Source: Leisingera methylohalidivorans DSM 14336 (GTDB lineage: Bacteria; Pseudomonadota; Alphaproteobacteria; Rhodobacterales; Rhodobacteraceae). Taken from it: a DNA stretch of 64,000 bases. The DNA lies in NCBI RefSeq assembly GCF_000511355.1, contig NC_023135.1, positions 2,258,371 through 2,322,370 on the forward strand, read 5' to 3'. This document shows, piece after piece, positions 1,972 through 43,577 of the stretch; the first letter of the stretch is position 1; each line of letters starts with the position of its first letter. The notes beneath the pieces were generated by a model. The model was not told the DNA's origin, did no database searches, and worked only from the letters and a program-made list of their open reading frames with translations. Both the position numbers and the translations under genes were made by a program.

Positions 1972-2035
1972 GAGATTCCCAGATAGGAGAACCGCCCCCG
2001 GCGCCCTATAAAGCGGTCAAACGACGAGAGCAGTG

Positions 2036-3556
2036 ATGAACGAGATTACTCCCTTTGACGGCGATATGCCCCCTCTGGCGCCGATGCCGGAACCCGCCGC
2101 GCCGCAGAACGCAATGCCGGACAATGAGCTGCCGCATTCGGTCGAGGCGGAACAGCAGCTGCTGGGGGCGATCCTGACCAACAACGAGGTCTACGACAAG
2201 ATCGCGCTGATCATCGACTCGTCGCATTTCTATGATCCGGTGCATGCCCGGATCTATGAGGTGGCCGCAGCGCGGATTTCCAAGAACGCGCTGGCCTCGC
2301 CGGTGACGCTGAAGGCGTTTCTGGAAGACCACGAGGGGCTGAAAGAGCTGGGCGGGCCGGCCTATCTGGCCAAGCTTGCCGGCGCGTCGATCTCGGCCTT
2401 TGCGGTGCGGGACTATGCGCAGATGATCTACGACCTGGCGATCCGGCGCGAGCTGATCGCCCTGGGCCAGAGCATTGCAGAAAAGGCGCGCCGCGTTGAC
2501 GTGGCATCAGAACCTAAAGAGCAGATCGTCGAGGCGGAGCAGTCGCTGTATCAGCTGGCCGAACAGGGCCAGACGGAAAGCGGTTTCAAGTCGTTCCTGA
2601 AAGCCGTCACAGAAGCGGTTAATGTGACCAACGAGGCATATCAGCGGGGTGGCGGCATGGCCGGCATCTCGACGGGCCTGATGGACCTCGACAAGCAACT
2701 TGGCGGCCTGCATCCCTCGGACCTTCTGATCCTCGCGGGCCGCCCCTCTATGGGGAAGACGTCGCTGGCGACCAACATCGCCTTCAACGTCGCCAAGGCC
2801 TATAAACGCGGGGTGAAACCCGACGGCAGCGAAGGCGCGCTGGACGGCGGCGTGGTCGGGTTCTTCAGCCTTGAGATGAGCGCCGAACAGCTGGCCGGGC
2901 GTATTCTGGCGGAAGCGTCGGAAATCTCCTCGCACAAGATCCGCCAGGGCGACATGACCGAGGGCGAATTCCGCCGCTTTGTGCAGGCGGCCAAGGATCT
3001 GGAAAGCTGCCCGCTGTTCATTGACGATACGCCTGCAATCCCGATTTCGCAGCTGGCCGCACGGGCGCGGCGCCTGAAGCGGACCCACGGGCTGGATCTG
3101 CTGGTGATCGACTATCTGCAGCTGTGCCGCGGCATGGCCGACAACCGGGTCAACGAGATCGCCGAAATCTCGATGGGGATGAAGGCGATTGCCAAGGAGC
3201 TGAACATCCCTGTCATCGCGCTGTCGCAGCTGTCGCGGCAGGTGGAAAACCGCGACGACAAACGGCCGCAGCTGTCGGACCTGCGGGAATCGGGCTCGAT
3301 CGAGCAGGACGCCGACGTGGTGATGTTCGTGTTCCGCGAGGAATACTACAAGGAGCGGGAAAAGCCCGGCGACCACGAACTGGACAAGATGGAAGAGTGG
3401 AAGCAGGCGATGGAGCGGCTGCACGCCAAGGCCGAAGTGATCGTCGGCAAGCAGCGCCACGGCCCCATCGGCACGGTGGAGCTGTCGTTCGAGGCGCAGT
3501 TCACCCGCTTTGGCAACCTGGCGAAATCCTGGCAGCAGGGGCAGGAAGACTATTGA
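2036..3556 (+). CDS. dnaB: Replicative DNA helicase DnaB
   Basis: Hexameric 5'-3' helicase that unwinds the replication fork and recruits primase. The 506-residue protein has the N-terminal DnaB domain (LPHSVEAEQQLLGAIL near residue 35), a linker, then the RecA-like ATPase with Walker A GRPSMGKTS near residue 235. Walker B is DLLVIDYLQL near residue 360, followed by ALSQLSRQVENRDDKRPQLSD. No intein interrupts it, unlike some DnaB proteins. The ATG at 2036 follows a GAGAG ribosome-binding site; a GTG immediately before it is in frame but closer to that site. DnaA-box-like sequences lie upstream. After the stop there is a 194-base gap before alr in which I see nothing specific. Confidence 0.96.
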   Translation: MNEITPFDGDMPPLAPMPEPAAPQNAMPDNELPHSVEAEQQLLGAILTNNEVYDKIALIIDSSHFYDPVHARIYEVAAARISKNALASPVTLKAFLEDHEGLKELGGPAYLAKLAGASISAFAVRDYAQMIYDLAIRRELIALGQSIAEKARRVDVASEPKEQIVEAEQSLYQLAEQGQTESGFKSFLKAVTEAVNVTNEAYQRGGGMAGISTGLMDLDKQLGGLHPSDLLILAGRPSMGKTSLATNIAFNVAKAYKRGVKPDGSEGALDGGVVGFFSLEMSAEQLAGRILAEASEISSHKIRQGDMTEGEFRRFVQAAKDLESCPLFIDDTPAIPISQLAARARRLKRTHGLDLLVIDYLQLCRGMADNRVNEIAEISMGMKAIAKELNIPVIALSQLSRQVENRDDKRPQLSDLRESGSIEQDADVVMFVFREEYYKEREKPGDHELDKMEEWKQAMERLHAKAEVIVGKQRHGPIGTVELSFEAQFTRFGNLAKSWQQGQEDY

Positions 3557-3750
3557 TCCCGGCCGGTTGCGGCCGCAATCAGGATGACCGTGCCAGGGCC
3601 TGGCAGTCCGCGTGACCGTCAGCGCCCCGGCACCGGCCCGGTTCAGCCCCCCCCGCTGGACCGGGCTTATTTGTTCCCCGGCGGCGGAGCTCTGCCGCCA
3701 TTCCGGTATTTCCCACTTGACCTGCGCGTGCCCCGTGTCATGAACACCGC

Positions 3751-4788
3751 ATGAGCACGGCAAGATTGACAATCAACCTGGATGCGCTGGTCACCAACTG
3801 GCGGAATCTGGATGCGCTGACCGGCTGCGAAACCGCAGCCGTGGTCAAAGCGAATGGATACGGCCTGGATGCGGGCCGCGTCGGCAAGGCGCTGGCCAGG
3901 GCCGGTGCGCGCAACTTCTTTGTGGCGGCGGCGGAAGAAGGCGGCGCGCTGCGGCGTGCGCTGGGGCCGGGCCCCGGCATCTCGGTGTTCTCCGGCCATA
4001 TGGAAGGCGACACCAAACTGCTGAAGGATTTCCAGCTGACGCCGATGCTGAACTCGCTGGACCAGATGCTGCGCCATTTCGAGGCTTTGCCGGGGCACCC
4101 GTTCGGGGTGCAGCTGGACAGCGGCATGAACCGGCTGGGGATGGAGCACGGCGAATGGGCGGCCGTGGCTGAAATCGCCCTGGGCCAGAACCCGGTGCTG
4201 CTGATGTCGCATCTGGCCTGCGCCGATGAGCCGTCGCACGCGATGAACGCCCGTCAATTGCAGAGTTTCCGCGATATGACCGACGGGCTGGAGATTCCGC
4301 GCTCGCTGGCGGCGACCGGGGGCATGCTGCTGGGGCCGGATTATCATTTTGATCTCTGCCGGCCCGGTATCGGGATTTACGGCGGATTGCCGTTCCAGGA
4401 CGCGCTGCCGGTGGTGCAGCTGGACCTGCCGGTGATTCAGCTGCGCGATCTGGAACCGGGCGAGACTGCCGGTTACGGCAACACCTGGACCGCCAAACGC
4501 CCCAGCCGCATTGCCACGGTGGCCGCGGGCTATGCCGACGGCCTGCACCGGGCGATGGGCAACGGCGGCATCCAGGTCTTTGCAGGCCGCACCCCCTGCC
4601 CCGTCGTGGGCCGGGTCTCGATGGATCTGATCACCGTGGATGTGACGGATCTGGCTGAGGTGCCGGAGACGCTGGCGATTCTCAATGAACAGCAGACCGT
4701 CGATGCGCTGGCCGATGCGGCCGGCACCATCGGCTATGAGATCCTGACCTCAACCGGCCACCGCTACGCCCGGACCTACCAGGGATGA
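3751..4788 (+). CDS. alr: Alanine racemase
   Basis: PLP enzyme interconverting L- and D-alanine for peptidoglycan. The 345-residue protein has the PLP-lysine motif AVVKANGYG (Lys33), the catalytic tyrosine in AGYGNTW (Tyr242), and the C-terminal signature [14 protein letters not shown]. Its length fits the family (about 340-370). Its stop codon overlaps the start of the MlaE-like permease gene by four bases (ATGA), so it is translationally coupled to a lipid-transport pair. This links two cell-envelope functions in one transcript. Confidence 0.93.
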
Positions 4789-34997: not shown

Positions 34998-36023
34998 ATG
35001 GGACAGAATTTGACCGCCAGCCTTTCCTCCGTCCAGGCCTACCCGGCCGAGCGTTTCCGCGTCGAATACGGTGCCAACATGGGCGACCCTATGGGGCTGC
35101 TCGAGGACCTGGTGCTGGACGACATCTACCTGCTGAACAGCCCGGTGCCGCCGCAGCGGCTGGGCATCGCCGCCCACCACGATGGCAGTTTCCGCATCGC
35201 CGGCGACACCGCCCTGGGCACCCCGGGCGCGGTGCTGCATCTGGACTGCCTGCTGACGCTGATGCCCGACAGCGGCCCCAATACCGAGATCCTGGTGATG
35301 GTCGAAGTGGACGGTGACGGGCTGATTGCCGGAATCTTTCTGGTGCCGCTGGCCCCCTTGCAGGCGCATATGCCCTATACGCTGGTCAAGGCCGGGCGCA
35401 AGTCGGCCCGGCGCAAGCTGGCACAGTCCGCCTGCGTCTCGTTCACCCGCGGCACCCGCATCACGCTGGCCACCGGCGCGCAGCGCCTGATCGAGGACAT
35501 GCGCGCAGGCGACCGTGTGCTGACCCGGGACGACGGTATTCAGGAGGTGCGCTGGATTGGCCAGTCCACCCTGCGCGCGGTTGGGGATCTGGCCCCGATC
35601 CTGATCCGCCAGGGCGCCTTGAACAACGCCAATGACCTGATCGTCAGCCCCGCCCACCGGCTGATGGTCTATCAGCGCAGCGACGAAATCGGCGCCGGCG
35701 CGCCAGAGATCCTGGTCCGCGCCCGCGATCTGGTGAACGGCGACACCGTTGTGGTGCTGGACGGCGGCTTTGCCGACTATTTCCAGATTCTGTTCGACCG
35801 CCACCACATCATCTATGCCGAGGGCATCGCGGCGGAGAGCACCTTCCTCGACCCTGTGACAAGCCCGGCGCTGCCGGACGATTTCTGGACCCTGCGGCCC
35901 GGACACCAGCATGGCACCCTGCCCGCGCAGCACATGCGCGGCGCCCACGGCCTGGACGTCAGCCGGTCGCTGCTGGACCGGCCGGATGCGGTGGGGCTGC
36001 TGAAGCGGGCGTCGCTGCGGTAG
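34998..36023 (+). CDS. Hint-domain protein (second, full length)
   Basis: A 341-residue protein. Residues about 15-130 are an uncharacterised beta-rich N-terminal part. The Hint_2 domain starts near residue 148 with VSFTRGTRITLATGAQRLIEDM, then AGDRVLTRDDGIQEVRWIGQ. The Cys usually opening this domain is replaced by Ser in SFTRGT, which could still act as a nucleophile. The C-terminal third contains the conserved DHHII-like segment FDRHHIIYAEGIAAES, which is common to roseobacter Hint proteins. Its last 326 bp recur at 39606-39931. It may be excluded from the adjoining foreign block, since its composition matches the GC-rich chromosome. Confidence 0.82.
   Translation: MGQNLTASLSSVQAYPAERFRVEYGANMGDPMGLLEDLVLDDIYLLNSPVPPQRLGIAAHHDGSFRIAGDTALGTPGAVLHLDCLLTLMPDSGPNTEILVMVEVDGDGLIAGIFLVPLAPLQAHMPYTLVKAGRKSARRKLAQSACVSFTRGTRITLATGAQRLIEDMRAGDRVLTRDDGIQEVRWIGQSTLRAVGDLAPILIRQGALNNANDLIVSPAHRLMVYQRSDEIGAGAPEILVRARDLVNGDTVVVLDGGFADYFQILFDRHHIIYAEGIAAESTFLDPVTSPALPDDFWTLRPGHQHGTLPAQHMRGAHGLDVSRSLLDRPDAVGLLKRASLR
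35698..36023 (+). repeat. Direct repeat, copy 1 (3' end of the Hint gene)
   Basis: Matches 39606-39931 base for base with a constant offset of 3908 and only a handful of substitutions (for example near 35752, 35879 and 35900). Homology starts at GCGCGCCAGAGATCC and ends exactly at the stop codon TAG, with unrelated sequence on both outer sides. Confidence 0.9.
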
Positions 36024-36498
36024 TCTGTTTACCGTAAAGCGTGATGGGGGTTCCAGCGCAAAGCAGCCGTTGGGCCTAAGCGCTGAGAAAGCCCGATCTG
36101 AGCCCAAATCAGACCGTGATGCCACCGGACAGCGTATGTCTGCTCATGGCGCCAGCACGGCTATCCTCGTCAATACGCCCGGCTCACGCCGACGCAACCA
36201 ACTATTCCCCGGATTCCAAAGCTCTCGGTTTTCTCGTTCTTGGCATGACGAACACTCTAATTTATCGAACAAGAAGTGATCTTAATTTGGCAATCGCCAC
36301 CGCGAAACGCCCTATTTGGATTTGAGCGCGATTAAACAAGCCTTTTTCAGGGGCAAATAACATGCTGACGTATAGCTGCCCGCTCATTCACATCAGTGTC
36401 CTAATCCACTGGAGAAATTTGCGACCACTATAATCCTAAGGTGTTCAGGAACTGCCTTAAAACCGCTGTGTTCTTCGTTAAGTCAAACCGGAAGTACT
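36024..36498. other. Gap after the Hint gene, start of the foreign block
   Basis: These 475 bases shift to lower GC content and carry no open frame with a start site or a recognisable product. I found no terminal inverted repeats or tRNA here. Confidence 0.4.
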
Positions 36499-38187
36499 TT
36501 AGTTCTGTCGCATCTGCTGACCGGTCTGGTTAAACGCCTGCATTGGATTGAAGTTGGCGTTATTGGTCAGGACGATCGACCCGTTTTGCAGCTGCCAAGC
36601 GTGATTGTAGTTCTGGTTAAGCATCACGGTATTGCCGGATGGCGTTTTCCACGGCTGCACCTCCCAGATGCCGCTAACGGACTTGGCATGGCCTGCATCC
36701 TTCATTCCTTCCCGTTTCTTCCAGCTTTCAAACATCATGTCGCCGATTGAGGTATCAGCCTTGGCAACGCTGCTGACATTGGGGCGCGGCTGGCGCAATT
36801 TAATTTCCCACCATTTCTGTTCCAAGTGCTTCCACTGCGGATTAACCCGTAGATTGTTGATGATCGGGGCAAAGCCAGGATGCCCCTCGTCCAATTTCCC
36901 TACGGGGGTGAAAATGCCCATGATTATTGCAGTACGCCCGTCGCGATAGACGGCCCCAGAGTAATTGGCCTCCGCATGTTTAGTGATCACGACGAAATAG
37001 GCGTCATTCTCGCGCTGCTGGGTGCGGACATGAGCGCGGATCACCACGCCATCCACCCAGACTTTGGCTGTGGCAGGCCAACTGGCGCGCCAGGCCTGTC
37101 CGATCAGCTGCGTCAGCGGTTCCAGTTCCGGTGCACGCTGAACGTCTTGGATCGTGACCTGCAAAGTGGTTGCGATGGCTTGAAAATAGGCGCGAGACAC
37201 CATCTCTGCGTCCGTCAGATCCTCACCGAGGCACATGTAGCCCGCTGGCCCATCGGTTGACATCCCCCAGCTGAGCGGATCCATAAAGGCGAGACCATAT
37301 GCTTCGTCCTGAGTGCCCGTACCCCATATCAGCCCCGCACCCGTGAAACAGCCCGCTTGCCCATCAGAGTTGCTCCACTTCACCCCCCCTTGGGTTTTCC
37401 AGCTCGCAGGCACCAAGGTCTCATAGGCCGCAAACGGTTGGCCCGCTGGTCCGTTTTGATCCACGATCTGCGCGCGCCGCATTTCGATCGCTTCGTTGGG
37501 CGGAGAAGCCGGTCCGTTTGAGGCCAGCGTAGTACTGTCATTTGCCTGCGCGGGAGCGCTGGATCGATCGCTAGCCGCCCCGTCAGAGAACGCTGTGAAA
37601 TAGGCGTGAACTTCGCCCACAGCCGCAATGCCGACACTACCGAAGCCGTAAAGGTTACCCCCGATAGAGCCGAGCGACGTGCCGTTGAGCAGATACGAAA
37701 TCTCATTCCCATTTTCCACGATGGTCAGCATATTGGCCCTGCCCAACTGAAACGCGCTGCTACTTTGTTCCAATAAAGGCCGGAACCCTTCATCGTCGCG
37801 GCGGAATATCCGCACCACGCCCTGCGCATCCAGCGTCAGCATGTGGTAGACATCACGGGATTTGTTCAGCCCATAGAGGATCCCAGCAGATCCGGTGCTG
37901 CCCGGGTGAATTTCGAGCACGACATCGATCCGCCGTCGGCCTTCGGTGCCGTTTTCTGGGCCGACATAGAAGTATCTGATCGCATGCGGATCACCAATGT
38001 TATTGATCTCAAAACTGTTGACGTTGTTGATGAATTGCCAGGTGTCGTCCTGTCCTGAAGCAGGCAGGTATTGTGCAAGACGCCCCAAGCCAGCGCTCCC
38101 GGATTGGGCGGAAGCCGGACTAGTATCAGCTAAGCACCAGACAAAAAGGGAACAAATTCCAGTAAGAAGAAAGCGAAACGCACTCAT
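36499..38187 (-). CDS. Secreted orphan protein with a DUF1080-like N-terminal region
   Basis: A 562-residue exported protein, not recognised. Residues 1-30 form a Sec signal (MSAFRFLLTGICSLFVWCLA...ASAQ). Residues about 45-195 are beta-rich (TWQFINNVNSFEINNIGD, RIDVVLEIHPG, GILYGLNKSRDVYHML, ENGNEISYLLNGTSLGSIGG) and resemble the concanavalin-like domain seen in 3-keto-disaccharide hydrolases, but without certainty. A Ser/Ala-rich linker (about 200-230) leads to a C-terminal half containing VWVDGVVIRAHVR and a Gln/Asn-rich end (NFNPMQAFNQTG). AAAGGAGC precedes the ATG at 38187. It lies inside the block bounded by the Hint repeats. Confidence 0.75.
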   Translation of the reverse strand: MSAFRFLLTGICSLFVWCLADTSPASAQSGSAGLGRLAQYLPASGQDDTWQFINNVNSFEINNIGDPHAIRYFYVGPENGTEGRRRIDVVLEIHPGSTGSAGILYGLNKSRDVYHMLTLDAQGVVRIFRRDDEGFRPLLEQSSSAFQLGRANMLTIVENGNEISYLLNGTSLGSIGGNLYGFGSVGIAAVGEVHAYFTAFSDGAASDRSSAPAQANDSTTLASNGPASPPNEAIEMRRAQIVDQNGPAGQPFAAYETLVPASWKTQGGVKWSNSDGQAGCFTGAGLIWGTGTQDEAYGLAFMDPLSWGMSTDGPAGYMCLGEDLTDAEMVSRAYFQAIATTLQVTIQDVQRAPELEPLTQLIGQAWRASWPATAKVWVDGVVIRAHVRTQQRENDAYFVVITKHAEANYSGAVYRDGRTAIIMGIFTPVGKLDEGHPGFAPIINNLRVNPQWKHLEQKWWEIKLRQPRPNVSSVAKADTSIGDMMFESWKKREGMKDAGHAKSVSGIWEVQPWKTPSGNTVMLNQNYNHAWQLQNGSIVLTNNANFNPMQAFNQTGQQMRQN

Positions 38188-38660
38188 AGCGGCTCCTTTC
38201 AAAATGTAGGTTGGAACTATTCGCAATAAGGTACCAGAAAATCGGGTTCCGACAAAGAAGTTTGGTAGAACGATGGCGAGAGGGGATGCTAGGCGTTAGT
38301 CCTAGCGGGGCTTTGTAATGGCTAAAGCGGACTAAGGTGCGGGCGCAGCAAAAGTCCGCAAAGTCTGAGGTTTGTGGCTGCTGTCATCGTGAGATGCAGC
38401 GGCGATAAATCTGACAAGGAGGAAAGCGCGGGCGGCTTTCGTTGCCAGGGGGATTGTGCGTTACGAGTTCAGCCTTCGTTGGCCGGATCGGTGGGGCTGA
38501 TCGCTTTGACGAGTGCAGGCGCGGCGGTTTTCACGGCCTGTTGTTGCCGGTTGGTTTGTCTTTTCGCATCCATTAGCCTGTTTTGGTGCCTGTTTCATGA
38601 GGCCGGGCGCAGTGATCGGTGCGGCGTCTGCGTATCGCCGGGCCGGGCATTTTCGCTGTG
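38188..38660. other. Region downstream of the IS91 transposase, likely ori end of the element
   Basis: These 473 bases hold no credible gene. Because IS91 family elements carry their replication origin (oriIS) just beyond the 3' end of the transposase gene, the left end of the element should lie here, probably between about 38330 and 38600. I could not identify the exact terminal sequence or the GAAC/CAAG target. Confidence 0.35.
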
Positions 38661-39605
38661 TCATGCGGCCTCCCCCAATGGCGGCGCGCGGGATTTCGGG
38701 GTTTGGCCGCGGGTGAATGCCTCAACGATGCGCATCGCCCCGCCGCATTTGGGGCCAGGCCGGCACACGATCCGGCCGTCGGGATCTTCGCTTGCCGCTT
38801 CACCGGTTGCCTGACCGGGTTCGGGCTCCGCGTTGAGCAAATGCCTGATCTTCTTGATCCTGCCGCGGCGGATGCCGTTGGCGAGGAAGCCGGTGTGGCG
38901 GATGCGGTGGAAGCCGGAGGGCAGGACATGGATCAGGAAGCGACGGATGAACTCGTCCGTGCGCAGGCGCATGATCTTCAATCGGTCACCGCGCCTGATG
39001 CGGTAGTCTTTCCAGCGGAAGGCCACCGTGCCGGCATTGGCGCTGACCAAGCGCTGGTTCGAGATCGCGACGCGGCGGGTATAGCGGCTGAGACAGGCCA
39101 ACACGGCTTCGGGCCCTCCGAAGGGTGGCTTGGCGCAAACAACCCAATCGGTCTTGCGTAGTGGCGCGGGATGGGCTGCAATGCTGCCGGAGCCGGTCAG
39201 TCCCGCCAATGCTCCGAAGAAACGCAGCTTGCTCGTCCGGTGCAACCGGATCAGCCCTTCAAGGAACAGGCGCCGGAACAGCCGGGACAGGACCTTCACG
39301 GATAGGAAGAACCTTGGGCGGCAGCCGATCCAGCGGGTGCCGTCCTGGGACAGCCCGCCACCTGGCACGATGACATGCACGTACGGATGGTGGGTCAGCG
39401 CCGGGCCCCATGTGTGCAGCACCGATGCCATGCCGATCTTTGCGCCAAGGTGTTTTTGGCCGGCAGCGATGGTCAGTGGCGTTTGTGACGAAGCCTTGAA
39501 CAAGAGGCCGTAGACCGCCGCCTTGTTCTGGCAGGCAAAGTCGGCAATCCGGGCAGGGAGCGTAAAGACCGCATGGAAGTCTTCGGCCGGCAACAGGTCT
39601 TCCAT
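38661..39605 (-). mobile_element. IS91-family (Y2/HUH) transposase, 5' truncated
   Basis: 314 residues of an IS91/IS801-type rolling-circle transposase. Seen: FHAVFTLPARIADFACQNKA at the present N-terminus, the HUH metal site in ALTHHPYVHVIVPGGGLS, RWKDYRIRRGDRLKIMRLRTDEFIRRFLIHVLP and a C-terminal CxGxxR region. The usual N-terminal zinc-binding part (about 60-90 residues) is missing: the open frame begins at the junction with the duplicated Hint fragment (39605/39606). The catalytic pair Tyr-x3-Tyr appears as CLSRY, so the first Tyr is Cys. Both points suggest that this copy is inactive. The lost 5' end is where terIS would lie. Confidence 0.85.
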
Positions 39606-39931
39606 GCGCGCCAGAGATCCTGGTCCGCGCCCGCGATCTGGTGAACGGCGACACCGTAGTGGTGCTGGACGGCGGCTTTGCCGACTATTTCCAGATTCTG
39701 TTCGACCGCCACCACATCATCTATGCCGAGGGCATCGCGGCGGAGAGCACCTTCCTCGACCCTGTGACAAGCCCGGCGCTGCCGGAAGATTTCTGGACCC
39801 TGCGCCCCAGACACCAGCATGGCACCCTGCCCGCGCAGCACATGCGCGGCGCCCACGGCCTGGACGTCAGCCGATCGCTGCTGGACCGGCCGGATGCGGT
39901 GGGGCTGCTGAAGCGGGCGTCGCTGCGGTAG
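39606..39931 (+). pseudogene. Duplicated 3' fragment of the Hint gene
   Basis: The last 108 codons of the Hint gene at 34998-36023, including its stop, recur here with a few substitutions. No start codon or upstream part of the gene is present; the fragment begins at the first base after the truncated transposase. An in-frame ATG inside could not give a functional domain, because the Hint start block is missing. It serves as direct repeat copy 2 of 35698-36023. Confidence 0.85.
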
Positions 39932-39972
39932 CGTTTCAAGCTCCGCAAGAGATGTACTAGACACTTGCCTAG

Positions 39973-40251
39973 GTGACCCAAGTGCCCACCTCCGCTTTAC
40001 CCCTATGTGAGAAGCTTAAGCATTCACTAACTGAATGCCCCAACGGCAACGAGTGTACGATTTTAGTACCGACAAAGCTTCGCCTTTACATGCCCTTCCA
40101 TTCAAATGATGGTAAGATTGCTCTCGTGGCCTCTTCAATTCTCTTCGGTTGCCTATGCTTAACGGACATGTCAGAAGAGGCCAACAGCGAACATCTCGGC
40201 GCCGTGCCCATACAGGCGCGTCCCCAAGCGCTCGAATCAGGCAGTAGATGA
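39973..40251 (+). CDS. Possible small gene upstream of the exonuclease gene
   Basis: A 92-codon open frame (GTG start, no ribosome-binding site) whose TGA overlaps the ATG of the exonuclease gene in an ATGA, the arrangement of coupled genes. It has one hydrophobic stretch (KIALVASSILFGCLCL) and no recognisable domain. An internal ATG near 40090 is an alternative start. The DNA is AT-rich like the two genes that follow. The overlap could be chance; I would not rely on it. Confidence 0.28.
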   Translation: MTQVPTSALPLCEKLKHSLTECPNGNECTILVPTKLRLYMPFHSNDGKIALVASSILFGCLCLTDMSEEANSEHLGAVPIQARPQALESGSR

Positions 40252-40832
40252 ATAGAGACATGGACATATACTTTTCCGCGGATATTGAAACCGATGGATC
40301 AATCCCCGGCCCGTATTCCATGCTGTCGTTTGCACTGGTTTATGCAGGGAATTTTGACGGTCACAAATTTGTGCGCCCGGCCCAATATACGAGAACTTTT
40401 TATCGCGAACTATCTCCAATTTCGGAAGACTTTGAACCTGAAGCACTGGAAGTTAATGGTTTAGACCGGGAAAGACTAATTTCCACTGGCTCAAATCCTG
40501 TCGATGCTATGCTTGAAGCGTATAACTGGGTGCGGTCTCAGTCTCAGGATGGCAACCCTGTTTTTGTTGCCTACCCGTTAAGTTTTGATTGGTCTTGGAT
40601 GTATTGGTACTTCTTAAAATTTTGCCCCAAAGGTTCACCTTTTGGACATTCCAGATGTTATGACATCAAAACTTCCCTTGCAGTAAAGTTGAATAATCCA
40701 GTTTCCCTTTCTGGAAAGTCAAGCTTGCCATCCGAAATGCAGTCAAACAAACCCCACACGCACAACGCGCTAGATGACGCCATTGAGCAAGCCGAAATTT
40801 TCGCAAACATTTTTGAATGGGAAAGAAATTGA
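40248..40832 (+). CDS. DEDD-family 3'-5' exonuclease-like protein
   Basis: A 194-residue protein with the three DEDDh exonuclease motifs: Exo I in YFSADIETDG (residues 8-17), Exo II around FVAYPLSFDWSW (about 106-117) and Exo III in HNALDDAIEQA (about 174-184), which supplies the general-base His and last Asp. These are two-metal-ion enzymes that trim RNA or DNA from the 3' end (oligoribonuclease, DnaQ and RNase T relatives). The protein is one compact domain. It overlaps the following nucleotidyltransferase gene by 16 bases, so they form one unit. GC content is far below the flanking chromosome, indicating transfer. Confidence 0.8.
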   Translation: MNRDMDIYFSADIETDGSIPGPYSMLSFALVYAGNFDGHKFVRPAQYTRTFYRELSPISEDFEPEALEVNGLDRERLISTGSNPVDAMLEAYNWVRSQSQDGNPVFVAYPLSFDWSWMYWYFLKFCPKGSPFGHSRCYDIKTSLAVKLNNPVSLSGKSSLPSEMQSNKPHTHNALDDAIEQAEIFANIFEWERN

Positions 40833-41812
40833 CTTACCTTGAGGAAAGAAGAAGTTCGACTCTGGAGAAATTTAAGGAACTGCAGATTAATGTTGCAGAC
40901 CTCAACAAGATACTCGGTGACAAGGCCTGCATATACGCTACTGGTTCTTTCGGCCGATTGGAGGCTGGTTCAAAGAGTGACCTAGATCTTTTCATAGTAT
41001 CGAAGGTCGCAAAGGATGGAGAGAAAACTGTAAACCTCCTGTCGAACCTCGATGTGATCCTCGCAAAAGCCGAACTTATCCGAGCAGTTCGAAACATGAA
41101 CCTTCCCGACTTCGATGGCGACGGGAAATACCTTACATGTCATGCTGTTTCCGACTTCTTGATACATCTCGGCAGCCCAGAGGATGATTATAGAAATACA
41201 TTGACCGGTCGCCTACTAATGTTTCTTGAAGGGCGAGCAGTTGTTGGCGAAGATGTTTTTAACGAAGTAATCGAAGAAGTTATTGCCGAATATTTTCGAG
41301 ACTACGCTGACCACTCGGATGCCTTTATCCCAGCTTTTCTCTGCAACGACATTCTCCGACTGTGGCGCACTTTTTGTGTTAACTACGAGTTTGCACGCAG
41401 AAAGAACATCTCCGCGCAGGAGAAGGCTCGGATAAAGAACTTAAAACTAAAACACAGCAGAATGCTTACTTGTTACTCCGCAATTTGCTTTCTCTTGTAC
41501 TGCTACAAGAAGAATCGAACGGTAACCCCCCAGGACGCGAAGGAAATGGTGAGCCTTACGCCCACGGATCGGCTCACGCACATCGCAAGGGAAGCCAATG
41601 ACCCCAAACTTGCTGAGGCAAATGACGATTTGATCTCTCGATACTCCGAGTTCTTGAAGACCACCGATATGCCAGATGAAGAACTGCAACACGAAGTCAG
41701 CGAGAATTGGAAAGCTTGGGAAGAAAAGTCATACGACTTTGGGGACAAACTGAATTTCTACCTAAAGACACTAGGGGAAGAAACTCGCTTCTTTAGGCTA
41801 CTAGTCATTTAG
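40817..41812 (+). CDS. Nucleotidyltransferase-fold protein
   Basis: A 331-residue protein. The polymerase-beta-type active site is clear: TGSFGRLEAGSKSDLDLFIV (about residues 42-61), with the helix-turn GS and the DxD metal pair, and a third acidic position expected near DLP-FD-DGKY. Residues about 100-320 are helical, with a conserved-looking FIPAFLCNDILRLWRTFCVNYEFARRK. The layout resembles GlnD/DUF294-type and CCA-adding-type transferases more than CBASS cyclases. It is coupled to an exonuclease gene, suggesting opposing additions and removals at a nucleic-acid 3' end. The strongly AT-rich composition indicates recent acquisition. Confidence 0.8.
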   Translation: MGKKLTYLEERRSSTLEKFKELQINVADLNKILGDKACIYATGSFGRLEAGSKSDLDLFIVSKVAKDGEKTVNLLSNLDVILAKAELIRAVRNMNLPDFDGDGKYLTCHAVSDFLIHLGSPEDDYRNTLTGRLLMFLEGRAVVGEDVFNEVIEEVIAEYFRDYADHSDAFIPAFLCNDILRLWRTFCVNYEFARRKNISAQEKARIKNLKLKHSRMLTCYSAICFLLYCYKKNRTVTPQDAKEMVSLTPTDRLTHIAREANDPKLAEANDDLISRYSEFLKTTDMPDEELQHEVSENWKAWEEKSYDFGDKLNFYLKTLGEETRFFRLLVI

Positions 41813-41845
41813 AAGATACTTTTAGAGCGAGTGGAAAAGGGCGCG

Positions 41846-41866
41846 GCCCGGCGGTGAACGCCGGGC
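41846..41866. other. Hairpin at the right edge of the foreign block
   Basis: GCCCGGCG (41846-41853) and CGCCGGGC (41859-41866) form a perfect 8-bp stem with a GTGAA loop. The composition switches back to GC-rich here. It may terminate the preceding unit weakly or regulate prfC, which starts about 100 bases on. Confidence 0.4.
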
Positions 41867-41969
41867 AGGCACGTGGCGCCAGCCGGTGCACAGGGGGGGC
41901 ACGCGGGGTGTACGCCTGCCGCCCCCTGTTTTTCTTGCCTCCTGCGGCATTCCTGCTATACGCGCGCAC

Positions 41970-43577
41970 ATGCTGGATTCCGCTTCAAACCACCCCGAAC
42001 TGCCGCCCGAAATTGCACGGCGCCGGACCTTTGCGATCATTTCGCACCCGGACGCCGGCAAGACCACGCTGACTGAAAAGTTCCTGCTGTACGGCGGTGC
42101 GATTCAGATGGCCGGCCAGGTGCGCGCCAAGGGGGAAGCGCGGCGCACGCGATCGGACTTCATGCAGATGGAAAAGGACCGCGGGATTTCGGTCTCGGCC
42201 TCGGCGATGTCGTTTGATTTCAGCGGCTTCCGCTTCAACCTGGTGGATACGCCCGGCCACTCGGACTTCTCCGAGGACACCTACCGCACGCTGACAGCAG
42301 TGGATGCGGCAGTGATGGTGATCGACGGCGCCAAGGGCGTGGAAAGCCAGACCCAGAAGCTGTTCGAGGTCTGCCGCCTGCGCGACCTGCCGATCCTGAC
42401 CTTCTGTAACAAGATGGACCGCGAAAGCCGGGACACCTTCGAGATCATCGACGAGATCCAGCAGAACCTGGCAATTGACGTGACACCTGCCAGCTGGCCG
42501 ATCGGCGTCGGCCGCGAATTCATCGGCTGTTACGACATGCTGCGCGACCGGCTGGAGCTGATGGACCGCGCCGACCGCAACAAGGTTGCGGAAAGCATTG
42601 AGATCAACGGCCTGGATGATCCCAAGCTGGCAGAACATGTGCCGGAACACTTGCTGGAACAGCTGCTGGAAGAGGTCGAAATGGCCCGTGAGCTGCTGCC
42701 GGCCCTGGATCCGCAATCGGTGCTCGAAGGCCATATGACCCCGATCTGGTTCGGTTCGGCGATCAACTCGTTCGGCGTGAAGGAGCTGATGGACGGCATC
42801 GGCGCCTATGGCCCCGAACCGCAGCCGCAATCCGCCCAGCCCCGCCAGGTGGCGCCGGAAGAAAAAAAGGTCGCGGGATTTGTCTTCAAGGTGCAGGCCA
42901 ACATGGACCCCAAGCACCGCGACCGGGTCGCCTTTGTCCGGATGGCGTCGGGGCATTTCAAACGCGGCATGAAACTGACCCATGTGCGCACCAAAAAGCC
43001 GATGGCGATTTCCAACCCGGTGCTGTTCCTGGCCTCTGACCGCGAACTGGCGGAAGAGGCCTGGGCGGGCGATATTATCGGCATTCCGAACCACGGCCAG
43101 CTGCGTATCGGCGATACGCTGACCGAGGGCGAGGAGATCCGGGTGACCGGCATCCCATCGTTTGCGCCGGAACTGCTGCAAGGCGTGCGGGCGGGCGATC
43201 CGATGAAAGCCAAGCATCTGGAAAAGGCGCTGATGCAATTTGCCGAGGAAGGCGCCGCCAAGGTGTTCAAGCCCTCGATCGGCTCCGGATTCATCGTTGG
43301 TGTTGTCGGCCAGTTGCAGTTCGAGGTTCTGGCCTCGCGAATCGAGATAGAATACGGCCTGCCGGTGCGGTTTGAGGCCAGCCAGTTCACCTCGGCCCGC
43401 TGGGTCAGCGGCGAGCGGGCAGCAGTGGACAAGTTCACCAATGCCAACAAGCAGCACATCGCGCATGATCACGACGGCGATGTGGTGTACCTGACGCGGC
43501 TGCAATGGGACATCGACCGGGTGGTGCGCGACTATCCGGACTTGAAACTGACCGCGACCAAGGAAATGATGGTGTAA
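41970..43577 (+). CDS. prfC: Peptide chain release factor 3
   Basis: GTPase that ejects RF1 and RF2 from the ribosome after termination. The 535-residue protein has the G1 loop SHPDAGKTT (residues 25-33), the switch II motif DTPGH near 93, G4 NKMD near 147, and domains II and III typical of RF3 to the end. The start at 41970 gives a length matching the family (about 530); coding character does not extend upstream, and the longer frame has no ribosome-binding site. It marks the return to chromosomal composition after the foreign block. Confidence 0.93.
   Translation: MLDSASNHPELPPEIARRRTFAIISHPDAGKTTLTEKFLLYGGAIQMAGQVRAKGEARRTRSDFMQMEKDRGISVSASAMSFDFSGFRFNLVDTPGHSDFSEDTYRTLTAVDAAVMVIDGAKGVESQTQKLFEVCRLRDLPILTFCNKMDRESRDTFEIIDEIQQNLAIDVTPASWPIGVGREFIGCYDMLRDRLELMDRADRNKVAESIEINGLDDPKLAEHVPEHLLEQLLEEVEMARELLPALDPQSVLEGHMTPIWFGSAINSFGVKELMDGIGAYGPEPQPQSAQPRQVAPEEKKVAGFVFKVQANMDPKHRDRVAFVRMASGHFKRGMKLTHVRTKKPMAISNPVLFLASDRELAEEAWAGDIIGIPNHGQLRIGDTLTEGEEIRVTGIPSFAPELLQGVRAGDPMKAKHLEKALMQFAEEGAAKVFKPSIGSGFIVGVVGQLQFEVLASRIEIEYGLPVRFEASQFTSARWVSGERAAVDKFTNANKQHIAHDHDGDVVYLTRLQWDIDRVVRDYPDLKLTATKEMMV

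What the first reader, a model, noticed from the sequence alone, without database searches (positions are those of the whole stretch)
40248..41812. AT-rich overlapping exonuclease and nucleotidyltransferase pair: candidate defence or RNA 3'-end system
A DEDDh exonuclease (all three motifs) and a polymerase-beta-fold nucleotidyltransferase overlap by 16 bases in DNA much richer in A and T than the chromosome, beside an IS91 remnant and inside a foreign block. One enzyme adds and the other removes nucleotides at 3' ends, which suggests a toxin/antitoxin-like or anti-phage module acting on tRNA or another RNA. Exonucleases and nucleotidyltransferases also occur together in some CBASS loci, but here no effector is seen.
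Basis: partly seen in the sequence, partly recalled or inferred. Interest (0 to 1): 0.75.

Follow-up and report, generated by a model that had tools for sequence, protein, structure and literature searches.

The report
Paired nucleotide-adding and nucleotide-removing enzymes
A Leisingera-like bacterium carries, on a small piece of acquired DNA, two overlapping genes for an enzyme that probably adds nucleotides and one that probably trims them; in every related place examined the adding enzyme lies near some enzyme that could undo such a bond, which hints at a little-explored self-limiting defence or toxin-antidote module.

Summary
The pair is real: a DEDDh exonuclease (40248-40832) and a polymerase-beta-type nucleotidyltransferase (NTase; 40829-41812, or from 40817 with the ATG) in DNA of 44-46% GC against 62% for the window. 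Relatives favour a TTG start and a 4-base overlap. Catalytic motifs are intact. The pair is patchy (NTase in 1 of 21 genomes of the genus) and fills a variable slot between a Hint-domain gene and prfC; the IS91 piece looks like a separate insertion. The same pair occurs in a MAG and two viral/provirus contigs, in one of them next to RmrA/RmrT defence genes; the two proteins' distances correlate (Mantel r 0.77). The exonuclease is Cap18-like (CBASS); the NTase matched no CD-NTase, MntA or AbiEii model above threshold and is a distant relative of PADLOC's candidate PDC-M70A. Unexpectedly, all 17 NTase loci whose DNA I held carry a hydrolase-type gene nearby: DEDDh exonuclease (4), HD (8, three of them 0.5-8 kb away), 2H-like (2), TIM barrel (2), histidine phosphatase (1). 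One close exonuclease lacks the NTase. I read this as a writer-eraser module (NTase modifies an RNA 3' end, hydrolase undoes it) used as toxin-antidote or defence; chemistry and role are inferred, not shown.

The parts
40248..40832 (+). DEDDh 3'-5' exonuclease, 194 aa, Cap18/Rv2179c-like
   Evidence: PADLOC PDLC00753 7e-38; PDB 7t2s 3.2e-26 and 2.6e-29
40829..41812 (+). Polymerase-beta-type nucleotidyltransferase, preferred TTG start (327 aa); the ATG at 40817 gives 331 aa
   Evidence: (PDC-M70A 3.2e-26)
40829..40832 (+). TTGA 4-base overlap of exonuclease stop and preferred NTase start
   Evidence: ATGA at the same junction in L001 and L032
39932..41837 (.). Segment carrying the pair, without counterpart in the four genus relatives compared, GC 0.46
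39606..39931 (+). Second copy of the tail of the Hint-domain gene (98% over 300 nt to 35698-35997)
34998..36023 (+). Hint-domain gene, conserved left border of the variable slot
38661..39605 (-). IS91-type Y2 transposase remnant, apparently a separate insertion
41970..43577 (+). prfC (release factor 3), conserved right border, found in 21 of 21 genus genomes

Best explanation
A horizontally acquired two-gene writer-eraser module. The NTase (writer) attaches nucleotides to the 3' end of an RNA, most likely tRNA, which stops or marks that RNA; the co-translated DEDDh exonuclease (eraser) trims the added nucleotides and keeps the writer harmless until infection or stress upsets the balance. Shown: two intact, apparently coupled and co-inherited enzyme genes; a hydrolase-type gene near this NTase family in all 17 loci whose DNA was held; mobile carriage. 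Inferred: that the NTase acts on RNA 3' ends, that the partner reverses the product, and that the outcome is toxin-antidote or anti-phage.
For: Same pair in the same order, overlapping by 4 bases (L001, L032) or 3 bases apart (L008). 16 exact longest-contig lengths are shared between the 120 listed NTase hits and the 120 listed exonuclease hits (jittered controls mean 1.5, maximum 7 in 1000); 11 of the 16 are 5 kb or more. Congruent clades (support 0.96 each) and Mantel r 0.77, p 1e-4, 16 pairs. Partner swapping: HD, 2H-like with two HxT motifs, endonuclease-IV-like TIM barrel, histidine phosphatase: unrelated folds whose common property is phosphoester hydrolysis. Asymmetry: NTase not seen without a hydrolase nearby (17 of 17 loci held), while one of five close exonuclease loci lacks the NTase (L028/L063), as expected of toxin and antidote. 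Mobile and defence setting: directly after a tyrosine integrase (L008); next to RmrA (1.8e-159) and RmrT (2.7e-38), with integrase pieces nearby (L032); contig with Zot (L056); main cargo of a 4.5-kb plasmid (L009). MenT1 and MenT3 show that NTase toxins can extend tRNA 3' ends (PMC10435456, passages read).
Against: No biochemical or phage data. Histidine phosphatases and HD dNTPase-like enzymes do not obviously remove nucleotides from RNA. A catalytic-dead Cap18 did not change CBASS protection (PMC9122588, passages). Partner order differs (exonuclease and HD upstream; 2H, TIM barrel and phosphatase downstream). I computed no chance level for having a hydrolase-type neighbour. In the 385-genome class samples no genome but the window's own had both proteins: 5 others had distant NTases, 3 others had exonucleases. 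None of the four plasmid NTase loci, and none of the five of 96 exonuclease plasmid loci opened, carried the other partner. PADLOC matched none of seven scanned neighbours of the pairs in the window, L001 and L008.
Confidence: 0.42

Rival explanations
1. RNA 3'-end repair. The hydrolase cleans damaged or blocked RNA 3' ends (trimming, or removing cyclic or terminal phosphate) and the NTase then restores nucleotides, rescuing tRNA cut by toxins or phage-triggered nucleases.
For: The partner types (DEDDh exonuclease, 2H, HD, endonuclease-IV-like TIM barrel, histidine phosphatase) include, from recalled knowledge of these families, several 3'-end-cleaning activities. NTases that restore RNA ends, and 2H enzymes that clear cyclic ends, are described for jumbo phages (PMC7824862, passages). 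A NTase that needs cleaned ends would also not be found without a hydrolase.
Against: I recognised no RNA ligase or kinase ORF beside the pair in the window (ORF list by eye; only a few neighbours were scanned). Pfam did not recognise the NTase as a CCA-adding enzyme. Substrate unknown.
Confidence: 0.24
2. Type VII-like toxin-antitoxin: the hydrolase is the toxin and the NTase inactivates it by attaching nucleotides to the protein, as MntA does to HEPN.
For: Weak similarity to MntA (E 0.042, below cut-off) and to minimal NTases and DrrA in PDB (E 0.09-0.77). The HEPN-MNT precedent is discussed in PMC3710099 (passages).
Against: One NTase family would have to modify about five unrelated folds; a close exonuclease occurs alone; in a CBASS locus the related exonuclease's activity was dispensable.
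Confidence: 0.17
3. CBASS-like signalling: the NTase makes a nucleotide messenger and the exonuclease degrades it or responds to it.
For: The exonuclease family sits in CBASS loci (L025, PDLC00753).
Against: No CD-NTase model hit at E up to 1; hhalign probability 1.2% (E 0.042) with one CD-NTase sequence; no effector, HORMA or TRIP13 gene recognised beside the pair.
Confidence: 0.08
4. Ordinary accessory metabolism or chance neighbours.
For: Rare, patchy distribution; some flanks look metabolic (L001, L010).
Against: Co-inheritance, conserved close junction and intact motifs.
Confidence: 0.09

Closest known systems
PADLOC candidate PDC-M70 (NTase M70A + TIM-barrel M70B)
   Same: NTase matches M70A (3.2e-26); two-gene overlapping layout. 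The L012 NTase scores 1.1e-146 on M70A and the L011 and L012 partners about 1e-105 on M70B; L012 lies by SIR2, HerA, BilD and RTasSbcB matches
   Different: Partner is a DEDDh exonuclease upstream, not the TIM barrel downstream; no M70B match in this genome
CBASS Cap18 exonuclease (CBASS with CapW, CdnC, Cap6/7)
   Same: Exonuclease family: PDB 7t2s, PDLC00753, 37% identity to the exonuclease of the CBASS locus L025, whose gene order matches the published cap17-capW-cdnC-cap7-cap6-cap18-cap19
   Different: Separate clade in the tree; no CD-NTase, HORMA, TRIP13 or effector recognised here
MenAT/AbiE nucleotidyltransferase toxins
   Same: NTase of a two-gene module; MenT extends tRNA 3' ends (PMC10435456, passages)
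   Different: No AbiEii/DUF1814 hit; partner is a nuclease, not the AbiEi/COG5340-type antitoxin
HEPN-MNT (type VII) toxin-antitoxin
   Same: Polymerase-beta-type NTase in a two-gene module
   Different: NTase about three times longer than the MntA model; no HEPN hit in either protein; MntA model far below cut-off
RNase T / CCA-adding enzyme (tRNA 3'-end turnover)
   Same: Exonuclease aligns with RNase T structures (best 3.2e-4); same opposed chemistry
   Different: RNase T model 27 bits vs cut-off 246; no CCA-enzyme hit

Membership tests
CBASS | CD-NTase | tested here: not met
   No PADLOC CD-NTase model at E up to 1 (that the library holds CD-NTase models is recalled); hhalign probability 1.2% with one CD-NTase, a single sequence
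CBASS | Cap18-type exonuclease (accessory) | tested here: met
   PDLC00753 7e-38, 7t2s; that 7t2s is Cap18 is recalled
CBASS | Effector gene in the operon | tested here: not met
   Pair flanked by Hint-gene tail/IS91 piece and prfC
PDC-M70 | M70A-type NTase | tested here: met
   3.2e-26 over residues 3-283, but the L012 NTase gives 1.1e-146
PDC-M70 | M70B TIM-barrel partner | tested here: not met
   0 matches at E 0.01 in the whole genome
MenAT / AbiE | AbiEii/DUF1814 NTase | tested here: not met
   No hit at E up to 1 in Pfam or PADLOC
Type VII HEPN-MNT | MntA-family NTase | tested here: not met
   NF047752 13.7 bits vs cut-off 60
Type VII HEPN-MNT | HEPN partner | tested here: not met
   Partner is DEDDh
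RNase T | TIGR01298 equivalog score | tested here: not met
   27 vs 246.2 bits
DEDDh exonuclease superfamily | D-E, D, H, D catalytic residues | tested here: met
   Invariant in 22 of 22 aligned rows; pattern in 119 of 120 listed hits
Toxin-antitoxin / anti-phage module | Toxicity neutralised by partner, or phage protection | not testable with these tools
   Needs expression and plaque assays

The most novel reading that the evidence does not exclude
One NTase family has paired, in different lineages, with unrelated phosphoester hydrolases (DEDDh exonuclease, HD, 2H, endonuclease-IV-like TIM barrel, histidine phosphatase), each serving as the interchangeable eraser of the same NTase-made RNA 3'-end lesion: a general, chemistry-based class of enzymatic antidote systems spread by phages and plasmids.
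Probability: 0.28. Interest if true: 0.8.

Novelty: new variant of a known kind. Interest (0 to 1): 0.55.

Why it matters
If right, it links PADLOC's uncharacterised PDC-M70 candidate, CBASS-associated Cap18-family exonucleases and NTase toxins through one simple idea, a writer with a replaceable eraser, and gives a two-gene system that can be tested directly in E. coli. It would also suggest looking at the CBASS exonuclease Cap18, whose catalytic activity was dispensable in the assay read (PMC9122588, passages), as an end-trimming eraser rather than an effector.

Tried and rejected
IS91 as carrier of the pair: not supported, because the duplicated Hint tail separates the IS91 piece from the pair. 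CBASS membership: NTase did not match. AbiE/MenAT and HEPN-MNT membership: not met. An apparent orphan NTase in three genomes of one genus: rejected after wider DNA showed an HD gene of the same family on the same strand 0.5, 6.6 and 8.1 kb away. Rfam and tRNA scans found nothing (tRNA: whole window; Rfam gathering: 36000-42100); promoter and terminator patterns were at chance level. PDB profile search with the NTase gave nothing significant. tblastn in the phage collection: no NTase match; six exonuclease records at 33-39% identity, of which one was opened, with 2-kb flanks and no NTase annotated in them. Scans of viral contigs with single NTases of the HD, 2H and TIM-barrel types found nothing. 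Literature: searches gave no paper; searches gave lists, of which I read passages of PMC9122588, PMC10435456, PMC3710099, PMC7824862 and PMC11514479 and saw the other papers as listings only. None of what I saw describes this NTase-exonuclease pair or PDC-M70. The library holds only CC0/CC BY/CC BY-SA papers of PubMed Central, so this is no proof of absence. A 2016 RNA-repair survey that I recalled was not held.

The scan found RmrA and RmrT beside the pair in L032 and nothing for seven neighbours in the window, L001 and L008. I raised the best explanation from 0.40 to 0.42 and lowered two rivals by 0.01 each for that.

Full report
1. What is there. The window lies in a 4.65-Mb genome of 3 contigs; the closest named relatives of both proteins are from Leisingera caerulea (82% for the NTase, 86% for the exonuclease). 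The exonuclease hits Pfam Rv2179c-like and, below its cut-off, RNase_T, PADLOC PDLC00753 'Effector, Exonuclease' at 7e-38 and PDB 7t2s at 3.2e-26 (I recall that entry as Cap18). The NTase hits NTP_transf_2 weakly and PADLOC PDC-M70A at 3.2e-26; no solved structure is close.

2. Start codon. In L001 and L032 the genes overlap by ATGA, and in L008 they lie 3 bases apart with a NTase that would start at TTG. In the window the aligned position is a TTG at 40829 inside TTGA, so a 4-base overlap is more likely than the 16 bases counted from the ATG at 40817.

3. Acquisition. GC is 0.436 and 0.458 against 0.622. The NTase is in 1 of 21 genomes of the genus (own included), whereas prfC is in 21 of 21; the L. 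caerulea protein shows that it is patchy rather than unique. Four relatives, chosen from the 21, keep the Hint gene up to 36022-36024 and resume at 41838-41924; between these lie other genes, such as a sensor kinase in three of the four. The Hint tail recurs at 39606-39931, 98% identical over 300 nt, so the IS91-bearing stretch 36024-39605 and the pair's segment 39932-41837 look like separate layers.

4. Is the pair conserved? By DNA: window, L001 (MAG), L008 and L032 (IMG/VR contigs) carry both. A fifth close exonuclease locus, L028/L063, has no NTase in the 16 kb fetched. By trees: the clades window/P0002/P0003/P0004 (NTase) and window/P0122/P0126/P0130 (exonuclease) match with support 0.96 each. 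Against: in the class samples of 385 genomes only the window's own genome had both, and neither the four plasmid NTase loci nor the five opened of 96 plasmid exonuclease records had the other partner, so the pair is rare. NTase frequency was 2 of 196 in the order sample, 4 of 398 in the phylum sample and 6 of 385 in the class sample, own genome included.

5. Partner swapping. I examined the surroundings of all 17 distinct NTase loci whose DNA I held. DEDDh exonuclease: window, L001, L008, L032. 2H-like, with two HxT motifs and no Pfam hit: L017, L018. TIM barrel, PDC-M70B: L011, L012. Histidine phosphatase: L010, inside a glycosyltransferase cluster and so less certain. HD: L009, L016, L020, L021 and L056, the last followed by a histidine phosphatase gene as well. 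HD at 0.5, 8.1 and 6.6 kb on the same strand in G534, G530 and G429. None of the 17 lacked a hydrolase-type gene nearby. The 2H assignment rests on motifs alone. Several loci come from the same genus (L016, L020 and L021; G429, G530 and G534), so there are fewer than 17 independent events; I computed no chance level; and the loci are a small part of the roughly 2000-3900 homologues.

6. Mobility and defence. In L008 the pair follows a tyrosine integrase and the contig ends at the NTase's stop codon. In L032, which has integrase pieces, the NTase is followed on the other strand by genes matching PADLOC RmrA (1.8e-159) and RmrT (2.7e-38), about 160 bases away; I recall these as the RosmerTA anti-phage system. 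L056 carries a Zot gene and a cytosine DNA methylase. L009 is a 4.5-kb plasmid whose only other listed gene is Rop. L012 sits by SIR2, HerA, BilD and RTasSbcB matches and L011 by AbiEii. Three scanned neighbours of the window's pair, two of L001 and two of L008 matched no PADLOC family.

7. Reading. The constant element is the NTase; the variable element was, in every locus held, of a fold that can hydrolyse phosphoesters. The simplest common logic is that the partner acts on the bond the NTase makes or on the end it needs. The writer-eraser reading (toxin-antidote or defence) and the end-repair reading both explain this. I prefer the first because the hydrolase can occur alone while the NTase was not seen alone, because of the mobile and partly defence-island setting, and because MenT toxins show the required writer chemistry (PMC10435456, passages). 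The type VII-like reverse assignment remains possible. In CBASS the related Cap18 was catalytically dispensable (PMC9122588, passages), which argues against the exonuclease being a killer.

8. Novelty. By the PADLOC library the NTase is a distant PDC-M70A and the exonuclease a CBASS-type accessory. I found no description of the two together, nor of the set of alternative partners, in the listings and passages seen. I therefore call it a new variant of a known candidate kind.

Noticed in passing
window 35698-36023 and 39606-39931: 98% duplicate (300 nt) of the Hint-domain gene's 3' end, bracketing a 3.6-kb insertion with a 575-aa ORF and an IS91-type remnant.
   Followed up: partly
window 36499-38226 (-): 575-aa ORF with a signal-peptide-like start (by eye) and no Pfam or PADLOC match.
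   Followed up: partly
L032 7729-9674 (-): RmrA and RmrT matches directly behind the exonuclease-NTase pair in an IMG/VR contig with integrase pieces: a possible small defence cargo region.
   Followed up: partly
L056 3753-6341: Contig with Zot carrying HD + NTase + histidine phosphatase and a cytosine DNA methylase.
   Followed up: partly
L012 1443-15225: PDC-M70 pair in a Mesorhizobium plasmid with SIR2, HerA, BilD and RTasSbcB matches around it.
   Followed up: partly
L009 (NZ_CP092257.1): 4.5-kb E. coli plasmid whose main cargo is an HD + NTase pair; its NTase gene is in 1 of 5426 complete E. coli genomes.
   Followed up: partly
L023 6001-12546: Cap18-like exonuclease on a Klebsiella plasmid close to a microcin B17-type gene cluster rather than annotated CBASS genes.
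   Followed up: no
L022 5607-6480: Unannotated Streptomyces exonuclease (about 50% identity) whose profile hits fall in two overlapping frames, possibly frameshifted.
   Followed up: no
L028 1516-2130 / L063 6850-7410: Close exonuclease relative standing alone, without the NTase in 16 kb.
   Followed up: yes
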